Shown one piece after another: positions 2,579 through 8,690 of a stretch of 64,000 nt of DNA. This stretch comes from Lentzea albida (lineage in GTDB: Bacteria; Actinomycetota; Actinomycetes; Mycobacteriales; Pseudonocardiaceae). Position 1 is the first letter of the stretch, and each line of letters begins with the position of its first letter. Made by a program: the position numbers and the translations under genes. Location: contig NZ_FOFV01000011.1 in NCBI RefSeq assembly GCF_900111005.1, forward strand, positions 186,001 through 250,000. Direction: 5' to 3'. Under the pieces are notes generated by a model. The model did no database searches and was not told the DNA's origin. It saw only the letters and a list, made by a program, of their open reading frames with translations.

Positions 2579-3859
2579 CTAGCGGGCCGCGGCGGTGGCG
2601 ACGCGGTCGCGGCCGTTGTTCTTGGCCTGGTAGAGGGCCTCGTCGGCGGCGAGGAGCAGGGGGCTGAGTTCGGTGGCGGTGTCGGGGAACACCGCGGCGC
2701 CGACGGAGCCGGTGAGGCCGGTGATGACGCGGGTCTCGCCGAGGCGGTCGACGACCTCGACCTCGAGGCGGGCGATGTCGAAGCGGATGCGTTCGGCGGT
2801 GGCGCGGACCTCGCCTGATCCGACGCCGGGGAGCAGGACGGCGAACTCCTCGCCTCCGAAGCGGCCGACGAGGTCGTAGGAGCGGACGGCGTGTTTGAGG
2901 GTGTCGGCGACGGCGCGCAGGACTCGGTCGCCGGCGAGGTGGCCGTAGGTGTCGTTGATCTGTTTGAAGTGGTCGAGGTCGAGGATGAGGACGCCGACGG
3001 TGGAGGCGAGGCGGCGGGCCCGGGCGAGTTCTCGTTCGGCGACGTCGTGCCAGAAGGTGGCGTCGACGAGGCCGGTCTTGCTGTCGGTGCGGGCGGCGAC
3101 GCGGAACTGCGGCAGCAGCAGGCCCATGTGCAGGGCGAGCACCGTGAGCAGCAGGATGGGGGAGAGCCAGGGGCGTGCGGTGGCGATGACGGCGATGCCG
3201 GAGCCGAGGCCGACGGACGCGGTGACGATGAGGACGTCGCTGGCGTGGCCGAGCGCGGTCTTCAGGGGGTTGGCGGGGTTGGTCATGATGATGGCGCCCA
3301 CGACCAGGGCGTAGTTGACGAACCAGTAGAGCAGTCCCGCGATCACGAGGGCGGCGAGTCCTCGTGGGCCGTCCAGGTCGGACGGTGTTGAGGCGGAGAA
3401 CATGTGCAGCACCCATTGCGCTGCGGCACAGCCAAGTACGACAGTGGCGGCGGAGAACAGTTTCCGGTAGAGAACGGCCCGGCGTTTGTAGACCCGCAGC
3501 CACGCGTGCAGGTAGATGGTCACGACCATCAGGACGACCAGTGGCATCGGGAGTACGAGCACGCCCGCGAATTGCCAGACCGACTGCATCTGCGCGTGAG
3601 GGACGCCCTCAGAGGAGATTTCGCGGATGCGTTCGATTCCGCGCGCTGCTTCGAGGTGGACCAGCGCTGCCGCGGTGAGTGCCGCGAACCAGACCCAGTG
3701 GCGCACCTCGACAGGGGTAAGCCGTGCGGTCGCGACCGTGACGAGTGCCGCGAGCAGGGCAATCGTCAGGACGTAGGTCAGCACGACAGGAGGAAGGGAC
3801 CATAACTTCCACCGGCGCGGGTCGAGCCAAGGCACGCTGCCACCCCCACCGAACACCAT
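2579..3859 (-). CDS. Membrane-bound diguanylate cyclase (GGDEF domain)
   Basis: About 426 residues. The N-terminal 250 residues hold roughly seven hydrophobic helices without an obvious soluble sensor domain. The C-terminal GGDEF domain follows a short linker: DSKTGLVDATFWHDV opens it, LDLDHFKQINDTYGH carries metal and guanine contacts, and the active-site loop is RFGGEEF (GGEEF near 335-339). An RSYD tetrad sits five residues before it, matching the RxxD inhibitory site for cyclic di-GMP. The domain therefore looks catalytically intact and product-inhibited; it should make cyclic di-GMP from two GTP. No EAL domain follows. ATG at 3859 is preferred over a TTG at 3868. Confidence 0.92.
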   Translation of the reverse strand: MVFGGGGSVPWLDPRRWKLWSLPPVVLTYVLTIALLAALVTVATARLTPVEVRHWVWFAALTAAALVHLEAARGIERIREISSEGVPHAQMQSVWQFAGVLVLPMPLVVLMVVTIYLHAWLRVYKRRAVLYRKLFSAATVVLGCAAAQWVLHMFSASTPSDLDGPRGLAALVIAGLLYWFVNYALVVGAIIMTNPANPLKTALGHASDVLIVTASVGLGSGIAVIATARPWLSPILLLTVLALHMGLLLPQFRVAARTDSKTGLVDATFWHDVAERELARARRLASTVGVLILDLDHFKQINDTYGHLAGDRVLRAVADTLKHAVRSYDLVGRFGGEEFAVLLPGVGSGEVRATAERIRFDIARLEVEVVDRLGETRVITGLTGSVGAAVFPDTATELSPLLLAADEALYQAKNNGRDRVATAAAR

Positions 3860-3973
3860 CAGGAACAAACCACTGTAGCTACCGGGTCACGCGAAGTCGT
3901 GGCTCCATGTGGGGGACCTCACCCTGAGTAGTCCTCGTGTTCTCACCCCTCGTTGCACACCCCGCATTCCCAC

Positions 3974-3980
3974 AAGGAGA
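3974..3980 (+). promoter_or_regulatory. Ribosome binding site of the repeat-peptide gene
   Basis: AAGGAGA, close to the anti-Shine-Dalgarno complement, lies six bases before the ATG at 3986. It decides the strand and start of the repeat peptide, since the other strand is also open across the repeats but has no comparable site. Confidence 0.8.
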
Positions 3981-3985
3981 CGGTC

Positions 3986-4141
3986 ATGATCAACCGCGCG
4001 CTGTCCACCGACTGGACCTTCACCTCCACTGACTGGACTTTCGCGAAGTCGACGGACTGGACGTTCGCGTCCGGGTCGACCGACTGGACGTTCGCCTCGT
4101 CGACGGACTGGACGTTCGCGTCGACCGACTGGACCGTCTGA
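3986..4141 (+). CDS. 51-residue peptide made of six STDWTF/V repeats; candidate peptide natural-product precursor
   Basis: The product starts MINRAL and then consists of six hexapeptides, STDWTF five times and STDWTV last, at residues 7-12, 14-19, 22-27, 31-36, 39-44 and 46-51, separated by T, AK, ASG, AS and A. The repeats use different synonymous codons (for example TCC ACC, TCC ACT, TCG ACG, TCG ACC), so the protein sequence, rather than a recent DNA duplication, appears conserved. The peptide carries six Asp, six Trp and five Phe, and only one Lys and one Arg. It has no signal peptide or membrane segment. A strong AAGGAG site precedes it and a hairpin follows. No recognised modification enzyme is adjacent; an MFS exporter and secreted esterase converge on it. 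A multi-core ribosomal peptide precursor is the leading guess; I do not recognise the family. Confidence 0.72.
   Translation: MINRALSTDWTFTSTDWTFAKSTDWTFASGSTDWTFASSTDWTFASTDWTV
4004..4138 (+). repeat. Six-copy coding repeat (STDWTF units)
   Basis: Six 18-base units, each encoding Ser-Thr-Asp-Trp-Thr-Phe/Val, with spacers of 3 to 9 bases. The core GACTGGAC is invariant at DNA level apart from codon thirds around it (GACTGGACC, GACTGGACT, GACTGGACG). Spacing in bases is irregular but always a multiple of three. Confidence 0.9.
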
Positions 4142-4165
4142 GCCCTGGGGGTTCGTGGTGACGAA

Positions 4166-4189
4166 GGAGGGTGTCCGCCAGCACCCTCC
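4166..4189. terminator. Bidirectional hairpin between the repeat peptide and MFS genes
   Basis: A perfect 8-bp stem, GGAGGGTG at 4166-4173 and CACCCTCC at 4182-4189, with an 8-base loop. It lies 25 bases after the peptide stop and just before the stop of the convergent transporter gene. There is no U-tract, as is usual for actinomycete terminators. Confidence 0.7.
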
Positions 4190-4193
4190 ACCG

Positions 4194-5396
4194 TCACCGT
4201 GACGCTTGTTCGGCCTGTTCGCAGGCTTGCTTCCAGTCCCGTGCGGCACCGGCCGCCGCCAGCACGCCCACCGCGGCGACGGCGGCGACGACGTGGTGCA
4301 CGGGCCAGGCTTGCGCGGCGGCGCCCGCCGCGGCGATCCCGAGGCCCTGCGAGACGCGCAGGGCGGTGACGGCGAGCCCGAACGCCTGCCCGCGGGTGGC
4401 GTCGGGCACGGAACGGACGAACGTCGCGTTCGCGAGCAGCTGGTAGCCGCTCGCGGCGCCGGAGAGGCCGAGCAGGACGAGGGTCCACAGCAGACCCGGC
4501 TGCAACGCCATCGGCAGCAGCACCGCGCACGAGGCGACCGCGAGCACGGGCATCCACCGCAGCCCGCGTTCGGCGGGGACGCGGGCGAGGACGACCATGC
4601 CCGCCGCGGTGCCCGCCGACACCACACCGAAGATGGCGCCGACGGCGGCCGGTCCCGCGCCGAGCCCGGACGCGAGCGGTGCGGCGAGTGCTTCGGCGGT
4701 GATGTAGAAGCCGGACACGCAGGCGAGTGCGACCAGTGCGCGCAGGCGGCGGTCGCCCCACACCAGTCTCGCGCCTCCCACGAGGTCGGCGGGCCAGGCG
4801 CGCACGTGCGGGTGGGCCGGTGGTGGCCGGTGCAGCAGGAACACGCCGACGAGCAGCGCGGACACCGCGAACGTCGCCGCGTCCGCCACGAGCACCGGGC
4901 TCGGTCCCAGGGCGGCGACGAGCACGCCGCCGCCGAGGAACCCGGCGACCTGCGCGAGCTGGGTGACGGTGTTGAGCGCGGCCTGGGCGAGGGGGTAGCG
5001 CTCGTCGGGCAGGATGGTCGGCAGCACCGCGGCCCGGGCCGCTCCGTGCGGGGCGCCCGCGAGCTGCACCGCGACCAGCAGCGCCGCCAGCACCCACAAC
5101 GGCAGCCCCGGCACCGCCATCACCAGCAGCAACGCCGCTCGCACGAGGTCGGCGGCCACCATCACGCCGCGGCGCGCGAACCGGTCGGCGAGCCCCGAGA
5201 GCAGGGGCCCGCCGAGCAGGTCCGGCAGGAACGTCAACGCGTAGGTCAGCGCCGTGAGGCCCGCGCTGGCGGTGCGGTCGTAGACGTGCACCGTCAGCGC
5301 GACCCTGGCGAACTGGTCCCCGGCCACCGACACCACGTGCGCCACGAACAGGGCGCGGAACTCGCGATCGCGGGCGAGTCCGCGGTAACCGGGCAT
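4194..5396 (-). CDS. MFS transporter (drug-efflux type)
   Basis: A 400-residue major facilitator protein with about twelve hydrophobic helices. The loop between helices two and three reads GLADRFARRGVMVAADL, the family's GxxxDRxxRR signature, and a second half begins near WGDRRLRALVALACV. The N-terminal YRGLARDREFRALFVAHVVS is typical of the EntS/macrolide-efflux subgroup in actinobacteria. It probably exports a small molecule or peptide using the proton gradient. The start codon lies three bases after the stop of the carboxylesterase gene, so the two are co-transcribed. It converges on the repeat-peptide gene, and export of that product is possible but only by proximity. Confidence 0.88.
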   Translation of the reverse strand: MPGYRGLARDREFRALFVAHVVSVAGDQFARVALTVHVYDRTASAGLTALTYALTFLPDLLGGPLLSGLADRFARRGVMVAADLVRAALLLVMAVPGLPLWVLAALLVAVQLAGAPHGAARAAVLPTILPDERYPLAQAALNTVTQLAQVAGFLGGGVLVAALGPSPVLVADAATFAVSALLVGVFLLHRPPPAHPHVRAWPADLVGGARLVWGDRRLRALVALACVSGFYITAEALAAPLASGLGAGPAAVGAIFGVVSAGTAAGMVVLARVPAERGLRWMPVLAVASCAVLLPMALQPGLLWTLVLLGLSGAASGYQLLANATFVRSVPDATRGQAFGLAVTALRVSQGLGIAAAGAAAQAWPVHHVVAAVAAVGVLAAAGAARDWKQACEQAEQASR

Positions 5397-5399
5397 GCG

Positions 5400-6893
5400 C
5401 TACAGGATGGACGACCAGAACCCGCACTGGTGATCCAGGGCGAAATCGGTGCCGCCGATCGCCCCCGGCGCGAGTGACTGCACCGGCGCGCGCCACCCCG
5501 GGTCACCGGTGCGGGCGAAGCGGCCCCACTCCGCGATCACGTAGTCCGACACCTGCCGCTGTGCGGGCGTGAGCGTCTGGCCCAGGTCGAACAGCATCAG
5601 CAGCTCGGAGCCGTGGTAGGCGCCGTAGTCGGGGAACGGCGGGAAGCCGGGGAAGATCATCGGCACGTCGGGGTCGGCGAACTCGTAGCCCGACACCCGC
5701 GTGTACCGGCCCAGCTCCGCGCGCGTGGTCTGGCTGGTGCAGGCCCACGACCGGTCGGTCAGCACGCGGGCGATCTCGTCGCGGGCGTCGTCGTTGCCGT
5801 TGACGGGGTAGCGGGCCGCGACCTCGCCGGCGTCTGCGCCGAAGATCCAGGCCAGCTGGTCGCCGTAGGCGGACTCCGGGATCGGCTGCGGCCAGAACAG
5901 CGGCGCGAACAGCGTCATCTCGTCGTGCGTCGACCCCACCAGCGTCGGCACGCGGTGGATCCGGCCGGTGCGTTGTGCGATGACCGGGTCGATCGGCAGC
6001 ACGGCGGTGTCGTAGGACGGTGACGCGAACTGCTCGTGCACCGTCAGCAGTTCCGCCACCGGCTTGGCCCGCAGGCAGGCCAGATCGGCGCACCCGAGGG
6101 TGCCGGTACCGGCCTTCTCCGTGTCCGCGCGTGACCGCCACACACCGGTGAACTCACCCGGCGTGGTGAACGACGGCAGCGTCAGCCCGCACGGCCCCGA
6201 CTGGATGATCGCCTTGGCGAACAACCCGGCCGCCCGCGGGGACGCCAGCTGCGCGCACACGCTCAGCCCGCCCGCGGACTCGCCGAACACCGTCACGTTG
6301 CGGGCGTCGCCGCCGAACGCGCGGGCGTTGCGCTGCACCCACCGCAGCGCCGCCTGCTGGTCGGCCAGCCCGAACGCCCCTGATCCCGGCAGTCCGGGGT
6401 GGCCGAAGAACCCGAACACGCCCAGCCGGTAGTTCACCGTGACCACGACGGCGTCGTTGTTCGCCGCGAGCCACGACGGGTCGTACATCGACGCCGCCCC
6501 GGCGGTGAAGCCGCCGCCGTGGATCCACACCATGACCGGCCGCGTCCGGTGGGAGCGCTGCGCCGGTGTCGTCACGTTCAGGTAGAGGCAGTCCTCCGTC
6601 TCCGAGGCCGGCTGCCCCAGCTGCGAGGTCTGCGCGCACGCCGGAGCGGGCGTCGTCGCGTCCCGCACACCCCGCCACGCCGTCACCGGCTGCGGGTCGC
6701 GCCACCGGTTCGCCCCGACCGGCGCGGCGGCGAACGGGATGCTCCCGAACGTCCGCACCCGCTCGGTCACCTTCCCCCGCACCGCGCCCTTGTCCGTGCT
6801 CACCACCGGCCCGTCCGCCGAGGCAGAGGCCGCGGGCGGCACGACGGCCAGTGTCATCACGGCGGCCAGCACCGCCACTGCTGTCCTTCTCAT
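5400..6893 (-). CDS. Secreted type-B carboxylesterase
   Basis: The 497-residue protein opens with a Sec signal peptide (RR, then LAAVMTLAVVPPAASASA, cleavage near residue 25). The mature part is a carboxylesterase/para-nitrobenzyl esterase: oxyanion HGGGF at 125-129, nucleophile elbow GESAGG with Ser206, and the ETEDCLYLNV signature near 98-107. It should hydrolyse esters outside the cell; substrate unknown. ATG at 6893 is preceded by AAAGGGGG. It is the first gene of an operon with the MFS transporter. The divergent fatty-acid-type operon starts 140 bases away and a palindrome lies between them. Confidence 0.92.
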   Translation of the reverse strand: MRRTAVAVLAAVMTLAVVPPAASASADGPVVSTDKGAVRGKVTERVRTFGSIPFAAAPVGANRWRDPQPVTAWRGVRDATTPAPACAQTSQLGQPASETEDCLYLNVTTPAQRSHRTRPVMVWIHGGGFTAGAASMYDPSWLAANNDAVVVTVNYRLGVFGFFGHPGLPGSGAFGLADQQAALRWVQRNARAFGGDARNVTVFGESAGGLSVCAQLASPRAAGLFAKAIIQSGPCGLTLPSFTTPGEFTGVWRSRADTEKAGTGTLGCADLACLRAKPVAELLTVHEQFASPSYDTAVLPIDPVIAQRTGRIHRVPTLVGSTHDEMTLFAPLFWPQPIPESAYGDQLAWIFGADAGEVAARYPVNGNDDARDEIARVLTDRSWACTSQTTRAELGRYTRVSGYEFADPDVPMIFPGFPPFPDYGAYHGSELLMLFDLGQTLTPAQRQVSDYVIAEWGRFARTGDPGWRAPVQSLAPGAIGGTDFALDHQCGFWSSIL

Positions 6894-7032: not shown

Positions 7033-7689
7033 GTGGGTGACTCAACGCTTCCTCCGCAGCCCGAGGTCGACGCGCTGGTGTTCGACTGGGGCGGCGTCAT
7101 GACGGTCTCCGTGCCCGAGTTCGTCGGCGCCTGGATGCACGCCGAGGCCATCGACCGCGACGTCTACGGCCGCATCATGCGCGAATGGCTCAGCCGCGAC
7201 GCGCTCCCGGACAACCCCGTGTTCCGCCTGGAGACCGGCGAGCTCACGGTGCCCGAGTTCGAACGGCTGCTCGCCGCCGAGCTCATCACCACCACCGGCA
7301 CGGCCGTGGACGGCAACGGGCTGCTCAAGCGCATGTTCGGCGGCGCCACCCCCGACCCGGCGATGGTCGAACTCGTCCGCAAGGCGCGCGCCGCCGGTCT
7401 GCACACCGCGCTGCTGTCCAACAGCTGGGGCGAGGGCTACCCGAAGGACCTGCTGCTCGAGCTGTTCGACACCGTCGTGATCAGCGGCCGCATCGGCCTG
7501 CGCAAACCCGACGAGCGCATCTACCACCACACCCTGGAGCGCATCGGCGTCCCCGCCGGGCGCGCCGTGTTCTTCGACGACGCGCCGATCAACGTCGAAG
7601 CCGCCCAGGCCGTCGGCATGCACGCCCTGCGGCACACGAGCGCCGACGCCACCCGCGCCCACCTCGCCACCCTCGGAGTGAACCTGTGA
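7033..7689 (+). CDS. HAD-family hydrolase, first gene of an ACAD10-like operon
   Basis: About 218 residues from GTG 7033. Motif I is LVFDWGGVMT, where the second aspartate of the usual DxD is glycine, as in the epoxide-hydrolase-N-terminal (HAD-IA) subgroup. Motif II is LLSNSW, motif III lysine is in GLRKPDERIYH, and motif IV is FFDDAPINVEAA. It is a predicted phosphatase or phosphatase-like protein. Its TGA overlaps the GTG of the kinase gene (GTGA), and the dehydrogenase follows. Human ACAD10 carries the same three modules, HAD, aminoglycoside-kinase-like and acyl-CoA dehydrogenase, in the same order on one polypeptide, so this looks like the unfused form. The upstream reading frame is open but has no supported earlier start. 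Confidence 0.85.
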   Translation: MGDSTLPPQPEVDALVFDWGGVMTVSVPEFVGAWMHAEAIDRDVYGRIMREWLSRDALPDNPVFRLETGELTVPEFERLLAAELITTTGTAVDGNGLLKRMFGGATPDPAMVELVRKARAAGLHTALLSNSWGEGYPKDLLLELFDTVVISGRIGLRKPDERIYHHTLERIGVPAGRAVFFDDAPINVEAAQAVGMHALRHTSADATRAHLATLGVNL

Positions 7690-8690
7690 CCGACCTTCCC
7701 GGCCTCGACCTGCAGGCACTGGCCACGCACCTGGGCACGGGCCCGCTCACCGGCGAGCTGTTCCGCGGCGGCCGCTCCAACCTCACCTACCGCGTCAGCG
7801 ACGGCACCGACACGTGGGTGCTGCGCCGCCCGCCGCTGGGCCACGTCCTCGCCACCGCGCACGACATGGCGCGGGAGTTCCGCGTCATCTCCGCCCTCGC
7901 CGGCACCGCCGTCCCCGTACCGGGCGCGAAGCTGCTGGTCGAGGACCCGTCCGTGATCGGCGCGCCGTTCTACCTCATGCAGGAGATGCCCGGCGCCGCC
8001 CTGCGCGAACGCGGCCAGTGCCCCTGGATCACCCCTGAGCAGGCCCGCACCCTGTCGCAGCGCCTCGTCGACGTGCTCGCCGACCTGCACGCCGTCGACC
8101 CCGAGTCCGTCGGGCTCGGCGACTTCGGCCGCCCGGAGGGGTTCCTCGCCCGCCAGGTCAAGCGCTGGGGCAAGCAGCTCGACGCCTCGCGCAGCCGCGA
8201 CCTGCCCGGCATCGACGAACTGCGCGACAAGCTCGCCGCCACCGTCCCCGACTCGCCGCGCGCCGCGATCATCCACGGCGACTACCGCCTCGACAACGCC
8301 CTCGTCACCCAGGACCCCCTCGCCATCAGCGCCGTCCTGGACTGGGAGATGGCCACCCTCGGCGACCCGCTCGCCGACCTCGGACTGCTCTACGTCTACT
8401 GGGCGGGTCTCGGTTCCGACAACGACCCCATCACCGGCGGCGTCACCTCCCTGCCCGGGTTCCTCTCCGCCGACGAGCTCGTCGCCCGCTACACCGCCCG
8501 CACCGGCACCGACACCTCCGGCCTCGGCTGGTACATCGCCTTCGGCTACTTCAAGCTCGCCGTCATCGTCGAAGGCATCCACTTCCGCTTCGCAGGCGGC
8601 CAGACCGTCGGCGCCGGCTTCGACAAGCTCGGCGCGTTCACCGTTCCCCTCGTGCGGCAGGGACTCGCCGCCGCCCACAAGGAGCTCTGA
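7686..8690 (+). CDS. Phosphotransferase of the APH/ACAD10-11 kinase type
   Basis: 334 residues with an aminoglycoside-phosphotransferase/choline-kinase fold. The nucleotide loop region is RGGRSNLTYRV at about 28-36. The catalytic loop HGDYRLDN gives His197, Asp199 and Asn204, and the metal aspartate is Asp219 in VLDWEMATLGDP. This DWE-A-GDP variant is characteristic of the kinases joined to acyl-CoA dehydrogenase in ACAD10/11 and of bacterial relatives acting on 4-hydroxyacyl-CoA, such as LvaA. The start overlaps the HAD stop by four bases, suggesting translational coupling, and the dehydrogenase starts three bases after its stop. The likely role is phosphorylation of a hydroxyacyl substrate; this is inference from family and context. 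Confidence 0.88.
   Translation: MTDLPGLDLQALATHLGTGPLTGELFRGGRSNLTYRVSDGTDTWVLRRPPLGHVLATAHDMAREFRVISALAGTAVPVPGAKLLVEDPSVIGAPFYLMQEMPGAALRERGQCPWITPEQARTLSQRLVDVLADLHAVDPESVGLGDFGRPEGFLARQVKRWGKQLDASRSRDLPGIDELRDKLAATVPDSPRAAIIHGDYRLDNALVTQDPLAISAVLDWEMATLGDPLADLGLLYVYWAGLGSDNDPITGGVTSLPGFLSADELVARYTARTGTDTSGLGWYIAFGYFKLAVIVEGIHFRFAGGQTVGAGFDKLGAFTVPLVRQGLAAAHKEL

What the first reader, a model, noticed from the sequence alone, without database searches (positions are those of the whole stretch)
3986..4141. A 51-codon gene built of six STDWTF repeats: possible new peptide natural-product precursor
Almost the whole product is one hexapeptide repeated six times. Three signals support it as a real gene: an AAGGAG site six bases before the ATG, synonymous codon changes between repeats, which argue for selection on the peptide, and a perfect hairpin after the stop. 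The repeats are rich in Asp, Trp, Thr and Ser, and the last one ends in Val at the C terminus. Multi-copy cores are usual in RiPP precursors such as graspetides and cyanobactins, but no ATP-grasp, YcaO, radical SAM or lanthionine enzyme is adjacent, and the leader would be only six residues. A self-assembling or metal-binding peptide is an alternative. I do not know this family.
Basis: partly seen in the sequence, partly recalled or inferred. Interest (0 to 1): 0.88.

Follow-up and report, generated by a model that had tools for sequence, protein, structure and literature searches.

The report
Micropeptide genes paired with c-di-GMP synthases
A tiny bacterial gene that repeats one short peptide motif belongs to a large, apparently undescribed family of micropeptide genes that sit beside a membrane enzyme making the messenger c-di-GMP, which suggests a new peptide signalling system in soil actinobacteria.

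Summary
The ORF at 3986-4141 (+) is real: five STDWTF units plus a final STDWTV, with close relatives in 8 of 24 Lentzea genomes, own included. Unit differences are all synonymous in the seven genes tested. It is divergent to a membrane diguanylate cyclase (2579-3868, -) and tail-to-tail with an MFS transporter (4194-5396, -). Upstream of homologues of that cyclase, 122 of 143 sampled loci carry a divergent, SD-preceded small ORF, or array of micro-ORFs, repeating a lineage-specific xx[NTSAHVG][DENTHSK]W motif; the opposite strand gives 0 of 143. Forms are repeat peptides in Pseudonocardiaceae (PTDWT, RPNDW, GNEW, DSNWH, SNNW) and, in Jiangellaceae, up to 13 tandem 7-codon genes such as MRDTTWS. 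Two genome-wide motif searches that did not use the cyclase landed beside it in 73 of 74 and 25 of 25 matches, though their motifs came from known loci. The MFS gene lies in the fetched flank of 99 of 122 peptide loci. Best explanation, inferred: a leaderless peptide signal made in many copies, exported by the MFS and sensed by the cyclase. Export, binding and c-di-GMP effect are untested. No database family or paper found describes it.

The parts
3986..4141 (+). Repeat micropeptide gene, 51 aa, six STDWT units (five STDWTF, one STDWTV)
   Evidence: homologues; purifying selection
3974..3979 (+). Shine-Dalgarno AAGGAG, 6 nt before the ATG; CACAAGGAGACGGTC is identical in the eight STDWTF loci L073-L080
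3875..3898 (+). Promoter-like element GTAGC-N15-AGTC; it looks like a Lentzea form of GTAAY-N12-18-DGTC, which occurs in 37 of 71 dereplicated upstream regions (shuffles mean 1.2, max 6). This GTAGC form is not among the 37
4157..4198 (+). Hairpin after the stop, between the convergent peptide and MFS genes; probable bidirectional terminator (inferred)
   Evidence: similar hairpins in relatives seen by eye
2579..3868 (-). Membrane diguanylate cyclase, divergent from the peptide gene: helical N-terminal membrane domain (DNA about 3092-3847; seven helices of 19 or more residues in the model, five strong hydropathy peaks) and a GGDEF domain (about 2603-3091) with GGEEF and RSYD inhibition site
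4194..5396 (-). MFS transporter (Pfam MFS_1), nearest NCBIfam models, below cut-off, TIGR00900 H+ antiporter and EntS; tail-to-tail with the peptide gene; putative peptide exporter (inferred)

Best explanation
The gene encodes the peptide of a three-part module: micropeptide(s), an MFS transporter and a membrane diguanylate cyclase. Its active unit is a short peptide of about 5-7 residues around xx[NTS][DE/NT]W. Lineages raise its dose in two ways: repeats inside one ORF (most Pseudonocardiaceae loci seen) or tandem copies of a complete 7-codon gene (Jiangellaceae). Shown: gene, repeats, selection on the peptide, linkage to the cyclase, frequent linkage to the MFS, a conserved promoter-like element, different peptides beside different cyclase paralogues of one genome. 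Inferred: the peptide is exported by the MFS without a signal sequence (the repeat forms perhaps cleaved), binds the membrane domain of its neighbour cyclase and changes c-di-GMP synthesis, so that it acts as a private autocrine or population signal.
For: Cyclase-first: 122 of 143 sampled loci have >=2 identical W motifs in SD-preceded small ORFs on the divergent strand, 0 of 143 on the other strand. Background: of 762 strand-windows of 1.8 kb, 39 were positive, 38 of them the cyclase-linked peptides themselves. Motif-first, without using the cyclase: 7-codon pattern in 296 class genomes, 73 of 74 matches beside a membrane cyclase, reversed-pattern control 0; GNEW-GNEW pattern in 390 family genomes, 25 of 25 matches at 9 of 9 loci, control 0. 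The motifs were drawn from known loci; new loci were 1 (another family) and 2, so what these searches show is mainly the absence of matches elsewhere. Arrays: micro-ORFs 95-99% identical, flanking blocks 29-52%, so each 7-codon unit is selected. MFS in the flank of 99 of 122 peptide loci; tail-to-tail in 31 of 31 MFS-bearing loci of the 60-locus set. Paralogues carry different peptides: G513 MRDNTWT and MRGNSWD, G543 and G624 MRDTTWS and MRGNSWD, G016 STDWTF and GNEWTF. Peptide class follows the cyclase tree: 10 changes (least 8), shuffled mean 37.7. GG[DE]E and RxxD kept in 20 of 20 rows checked.
Against: No signal sequence recognisable by eye, no peptidase seen in the module, and no experiment on export, binding or c-di-GMP. 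21 of 143 loci miss the >=2-motif rule: 8 have a single motif or a shifted frame, 13 have none found. 23 of 122 peptide loci show no MFS in the fetched flank (most flanks only 1.5 kb), and 3 of 13 peptide-less loci have one. Linked inheritance alone would also make peptide class follow the cyclase tree, which is a quick tree with long-branch warnings. Neighbour genes can share regulation without physical interaction.
Confidence: 0.5

Rival explanations
1. Cytosolic or membrane-bound allosteric micropeptide: it is never exported and binds the membrane cyclase (or its MFS neighbour) from inside the cell that made it, setting c-di-GMP by expression level.
For: No signal sequence recognisable by eye in the members printed; divergent promoter pairing; 7-residue forms need no processing; 23 of 122 peptide loci show no MFS in the fetched flank.
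Against: MFS with similarity to efflux types beside 99 of 122 loci; distinct motif codes for paralogues suit cell-to-cell signalling; known leaderless signals are secreted without signal sequences (PMC10518010, passages).
Confidence: 0.25
2. RiPP or other natural-product precursor: the repeats are cores modified by enzymes encoded elsewhere and exported by the MFS; the cyclase is only a co-regulated neighbour.
For: Multi-copy cores are usual in some RiPPs (recalled); NCBIfam has an MFS exporter model for a RiPP (NF041056, ryptide), which matches the L251 MFS far below its cut-off, 24.9 of 575 bits.
Against: No modifying enzyme among 16 Pfam-scanned products at two sites; no leader; 7-residue gene products; the partner that recurs is a cyclase.
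Confidence: 0.1
3. The module is an antimicrobial or matrix peptide with its exporter, and c-di-GMP merely times its production.
For: Peptide, exporter and regulator fit a secretion module; high copy number fits mass production.
Against: Different peptides for cyclase paralogues and near one class per cyclase clade point to specificity for the cyclase; single-copy forms exist.
Confidence: 0.08
4. The function lies in the RNA: repeated Shine-Dalgarno sites or repeats act as ribosome or RNA-protein traps.
For: Arrays hold up to 13 SD sites; strong hairpin after the window gene.
Against: Synonymous-only changes between units; in repeat ORFs a single SD serves all units; SD-region sequence varies more than the ORFs; no Rfam match in the 6 sources searched at gathering threshold.
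Confidence: 0.04

Closest known systems
Leaderless communication peptides (LCP/SIP) with RopB, Firmicutes (PMC10518010; abstract and passages read)
   Same: Ultrashort SD-preceded ORF next to, preferably divergent from, its receptor gene; no secretion signal; distinct peptide codes for different receptors
   Different: Here the putative receptor is a membrane diguanylate cyclase, not a cytosolic RRNPPA regulator; motif is polar with Trp; copies are multiplied as repeats or gene arrays; an MFS gene is part of most loci
Multi-copy peptide precursors (RiPPs such as graspetides and cyanobactins; yeast alpha-factor; recalled)
   Same: Several copies of one short unit in one precursor
   Different: No leader, no modifying enzyme found, and sister lineages encode the unit as separate complete 7-codon genes
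Membrane sensor diguanylate cyclases (GGDEF, PF00990/TIGR00254)
   Same: C-terminal GGDEF domain with GG[DE]E core and RxxD site behind a polytopic membrane domain
   Different: The membrane domain has no Pfam match above cut-off in the two scanned and is paired with a micropeptide gene
DHA3-type MFS exporters (TIGR00900, EntS, Mef)
   Same: Sequence similarity below NCBIfam cut-offs, Pfam MFS_1 and MFS_3 over cut-off
   Different: Tail-to-tail with the micropeptide gene at most loci; substrate unknown

Membership tests
RiPP precursor (graspetide/cyanobactin type) | Modifying enzyme (ATP-grasp, YcaO, radical SAM, LanM and others) in the cluster | tested here: not met
   16 products Pfam-scanned at two sites, none of these; left flank in the window is only 4 kb
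RiPP precursor (graspetide/cyanobactin type) | N-terminal leader recognised by the enzyme | tested here: not met
   6 residues before the first unit here; none in 7-residue relatives
RiPP precursor (graspetide/cyanobactin type) | Post-translational modification of the core | not testable with these tools
   Needs mass spectrometry
Leaderless communication peptide (LCP) | SD-preceded ultrashort ORF adjacent and divergent to a receptor gene | tested here: met
   as to size and position beside the putative receptor: 7-codon ORFs in Jiangellaceae, longer repeat ORFs in Lentzea
Leaderless communication peptide (LCP) | Receptor is an RRNPPA-family cytosolic regulator (RopB clan) | tested here: not met
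   Neighbour is a membrane GGDEF protein
Leaderless communication peptide (LCP) | Secreted and active as an intercellular signal | not testable with these tools
   Needs culture and peptide assays
Diguanylate cyclase (GGDEF) | GGDEF domain over curated cut-off | tested here: met
   PF00990 137.8 bits vs 23.8; TIGR00254 151.6 vs 37.4
Diguanylate cyclase (GGDEF) | Active-site GG[DE]E and RxxD inhibition site | tested here: met
   Window protein; and 20 of 20 relatives checked, nine of them with GGDEL
Known fold for the membrane domain | Match of the membrane domain to a solved structure | tested here: inconclusive
   Whole-model searches filled by the GGDEF part; domain-only model pLDDT 51, not searched
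DHA3-type MFS exporter | NCBIfam TIGR00900 over cut-off | tested here: not met
   121.9 bits vs 319.6; Pfam MFS_1 met
Any Pfam or NCBIfam peptide family | Profile match of the window peptide | tested here: not met
   0 families at E <= 10

The most novel reading that the evidence does not exclude
A micropeptide language of actinobacteria: complete 5-7 residue, leaderless peptides, encoded in bulk as intragenic repeats or as arrays of up to 13 seven-codon genes, are exported and directly gate membrane diguanylate cyclases, with several orthogonal peptide-cyclase channels in one genome. It would be a peptide-gated source of c-di-GMP, a coupling I know of nowhere else.
Probability: 0.42. Interest if true: 0.95.

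Novelty: categorically new. Interest (0 to 1): 0.87.

Why it matters
In Streptomyces, c-di-GMP controls the step from vegetative growth to sporulation through BldD (recalled). What tells the many membrane diguanylate cyclases of actinobacteria when to act is, to my knowledge, largely unknown. A linked peptide, exporter and cyclase would give a directly testable input signal, and a set of orthogonal parts. It also shows that 7-codon genes, far below usual gene-calling limits, can be selected and amplified in arrays.

Tried and rejected
The first homology search with the 51-residue peptide in 5.8 billion proteins gave nothing at E <= 1; progress came from DNA and whole-genome searches. Pfam and NCBIfam gave no family for the peptide, Rfam none for the window and five loci. 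I first took family f21 for Micromonosporaceae from memory; names and equal contig lengths show Jiangellaceae, so the notes written are wrong on that point.

A pattern search in 18 genomes chosen because they carry the cyclase: 102 matches, 88 beside the cyclase by my hand count, reversed control 10; not counted as independent evidence. Eight of the 14 others are one same sequence, one per genome; in the one looked at (L329) the frame runs on as a 46-residue stretch. The searches used motifs taken from loci already seen: 14 of their 15 and 7 of their 9 genomes were known carriers, and matches were placed by comparing coordinates by hand.

Own-genome control: 26 GGDEF matches; upstream could be read for only 6 of the other loci (L193, L195-L198, L201), none with repeated motifs.

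Nine cyclase rows were dropped from the tree by my own regex (GGDEL instead of GGDEF), seven from GNEW and two from SNNW loci, so the GNEW clade there rests on 3 rows; one search shows the nine intact at the checked sites. Fold search could not test the membrane domain. Literature: searches found no description; only 10 of 30 papers were listed, unrelated by title; PMC6429828 was looked at in passages only, and those do not mention this family. The library is open-access only.

The 60 upstream regions were hand-picked for diversity from the printed rows; other printed and all unprinted rows were left out. The Shine-Dalgarno rule in the scripts is loose (one of five 4-letter words).

Full report
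What is there. The ORF at 3986-4141 (+) encodes MINRALSTDWTFTSTDWTFAKSTDWTFASGSTDWTFASSTDWTFASTDWTV, with AAGGAG six bases before the ATG and a stable hairpin after the stop (z -5.0). Of 24 Lentzea genomes, own included, 8 have it at E <= 3e-22; six named records are five Lentzea and one filed as Nocardia sp. NRRL S-836, which may be some of the same genomes. Spacers between units vary in length (1-3 residues in the window gene) while STDWT never varies in the seven aligned genes. Between units of one gene there are 22-30 synonymous and no nonsynonymous pairwise differences, over about 50 and 175 sites, in all seven genes tested. The peptide is what selection sees.

The neighbours. The gene is divergent to a membrane GGDEF protein (2579-3868, -) and tail-to-tail with an MFS gene (4194-5396, -). 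The same order occurs in genus g11 of the family search (Amycolatopsis by one equal contig length, G170), where the peptide reads ...RPTDWTRQLPTDWTRAIPTDWTPRQLPTDWTARELPTDWTVRELPTDWTRP....

Lentzea without STDWTF. The cyclase has an orthologue in 23 of 24 Lentzea genomes. Reading upstream of it, all 23 carry a divergent small ORF after a Shine-Dalgarno-like site: STDWTF in 8, otherwise short peptides with RPTDW, RPNDW or RPNEW units. A paralogous cyclase in G016 has MNTTTSGNEWTFRGNEWTFRTGNEWTFRGRS; a second paralogue (L097, G019) has none. So the motif drifts, the architecture stays.

The family. Membrane-cyclase homologues occur in 226 of 390 genomes of the family at E <= 1e-90 and in 22 of 296 class genomes at E <= 1e-70. 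Upstream regions of hand-picked diverse examples (60 of the rows printed) show RPTDW, RPNDW, RPNEW, RPSEW, RPADW, RPAEW, RPTEW, GNEW, DSNWH, DDSNWV, DSHWN, SNNW and GSEWH or SSEWH units, single-motif forms such as MNTSTRIAARRPRTGRPTEWNR, and in G113 three tandem 13-codon genes (MRNNTWRRNNTWS twice, MRNNTWRNNTWSR once), each with its own Shine-Dalgarno site. In family f21 (Jiangellaceae: names; contig lengths equal for Jiangella alba and Phytoactinopolyspora halotolerans) the unit is often a complete 7-codon gene in arrays: 12 MRDTTWS and one MRDTTWR (L221); MRDNTWT, 8 copies (L215); MRDNNWN, 8 (L230); MRGNSWD, 6 (L240). In the four arrays measured, spacing is 66-81 bases; ORFs are 95-99% identical to each other within an array, the 24 bases before the start 48-69%, the next blocks outward 29-52%.

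Counts and controls. Rule: at least two identical [NTSAHVG][DENTHSK]W trimers in SD-preceded ORFs of 6-130 codons. Divergent strand: 24 of 25 Lentzea loci, 29 of 29 g11 orthologues, 47 of 60 others, 22 of 29 class loci, together 122 of 143; opposite strand of the same regions 0 of 143. Of the 21 misses, 8 have one motif or a shifted frame (L137, L139, L140, L141, L142, L150, L229, L231) and 13 have none found (L097, L146, L148, L158, L160, L161, L162, L187, L222, L227, L232, L233, L234). In 762 strand-windows of 1.8 kb from 47 long sequences, 39 were positive, 38 of them these same peptides and one elsewhere (L072). An earlier scan gave 23 positives among 626 SD-ORFs in 476,510 bases, 22 of them these peptides. 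In the window's own genome, 6 other GGDEF genes whose upstream was held have no repeated motif (26 GGDEF matches in all).

Searches that did not use the cyclase. A 24-base pattern for the 7-codon gene, run on 296 class genomes, gave 74 matches in 15 genomes and none for the reversed control. By comparison of coordinates, and by tblastn for the one genome of another family (L327), 73 lie divergent and upstream of a membrane cyclase; the last lies 60 bases from a contig end. A GNEW...GNEW pattern on 390 family genomes gave 25 matches at 9 loci, all 9 upstream of a cyclase listed; control 0. Both motifs came from loci already known: 14 of 15 and 7 of 9 genomes were known carriers. The searches therefore show mainly that the motifs are not found elsewhere; three loci were new and fitted.

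Transporter and promoter. The MFS homologue was found in the fetched flank of 99 of 122 multi-motif, 2 of 8 single-motif or shifted, and 3 of 13 peptide-less loci, and was tail-to-tail in all 31 MFS-bearing loci of the 60-locus set. At some loci without it in the flank the MFS is further off or on the far side of the cyclase. An element GTAAY-N12-18-DGTC occurs in 37 of 71 dereplicated Pseudonocardiaceae upstream regions (mean 1.2, max 6 in 200 shuffles), 43-100 bases before the start codon; Lentzea has a GTAGC form that is not counted. It resembles an ECF-sigma promoter (from memory).

The cyclase. The AlphaFold model (48 sequences, pLDDT 83.9, pTM 0.60) has seven helices of 19 or more residues before the GGDEF domain; plain hydropathy gives five strong peaks. 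GG[DE]E and the RxxD site are present in 20 of 20 relatives checked, nine with GGDEL. Solved-structure matches cover the GGDEF part. Peptide class follows the cyclase tree with 10 changes (least possible 8, shuffled mean 37.7) over 82 rows; the micro-ORF form, including two Pseudonocardiaceae paralogues, forms one clade (quick tree, long branches flagged). Linkage alone predicts much of this. More telling, paralogous cyclases of one genome have different peptides (G016, G513, G543, G624).

How it probably works. The 7-codon genes show that the unit is complete without processing, and single-motif forms suggest that one unit suffices; repeats and arrays then look like dose. Divergent pairing with the cyclase, the efflux-like MFS and paralogue-specific codes suggest a leaderless signal that leaves through the MFS and is read by the cyclase. 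Leaderless communication peptides of Firmicutes give the precedent for export without a signal sequence and for divergent pairing with the receptor (PMC10518010, abstract and passages), but their receptor is a cytosolic regulator. Export, binding, direction of the effect on c-di-GMP and any cleavage of the repeat chains are inference. An intracellular ligand is the strongest rival.

Novelty. The window peptide matches no Pfam or NCBIfam family, and the window and five loci no Rfam family; eight literature searches found no description (open-access library only; one search listed 10 of 30). If the signal model holds, the kind of function (peptide signalling) is known, but the peptide family, the gene-array format and the coupling to c-di-GMP are, to my knowledge, new.

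Noticed in passing
L328 about 2581-2672 (-) (G016:C154); also L029, L030: A short STDWTFASTDWTR stretch in a longer open frame, with no membrane GGDEF gene found within the 5 kb held; perhaps a decayed extra copy of the peptide gene.
   Followed up: partly
L072 about 7922-8137 (-): Repeat STGWRGGSTDWRGG in an ORF: the one background positive of the 762 control windows.
   Followed up: no
L068 (G007:C27) about 7634-8300 (+): Long degenerate heptad-like repeats (xxTDRLxxATDWL) in open frames with a stop between them; looks unrelated.
   Followed up: no
L141 (Kutzneria chonburiensis by equal contig length): Two SEW motif codon sets present but out of frame with the expected start: a shifted copy beside a membrane cyclase.
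   Followed up: no
L055 5078-6430 and relatives: In the Amycolatopsis-like loci a PLP-dependent enzyme (PF00291, perhaps TrpB-like, from memory) lies tail-to-tail with the cyclase next to the Trp-rich peptide gene.
   Followed up: no
L323 (G019 paralogue) 3984-6481: MFS and cyclase homologues in the same direction with no motif peptide found nearby: a two-part form of the module.
   Followed up: partly
L004 8170-11358, L007 8303-11386: A large gene of about 1030-1060 codons lies between the peptide gene and the MFS in some Lentzea.
   Followed up: no
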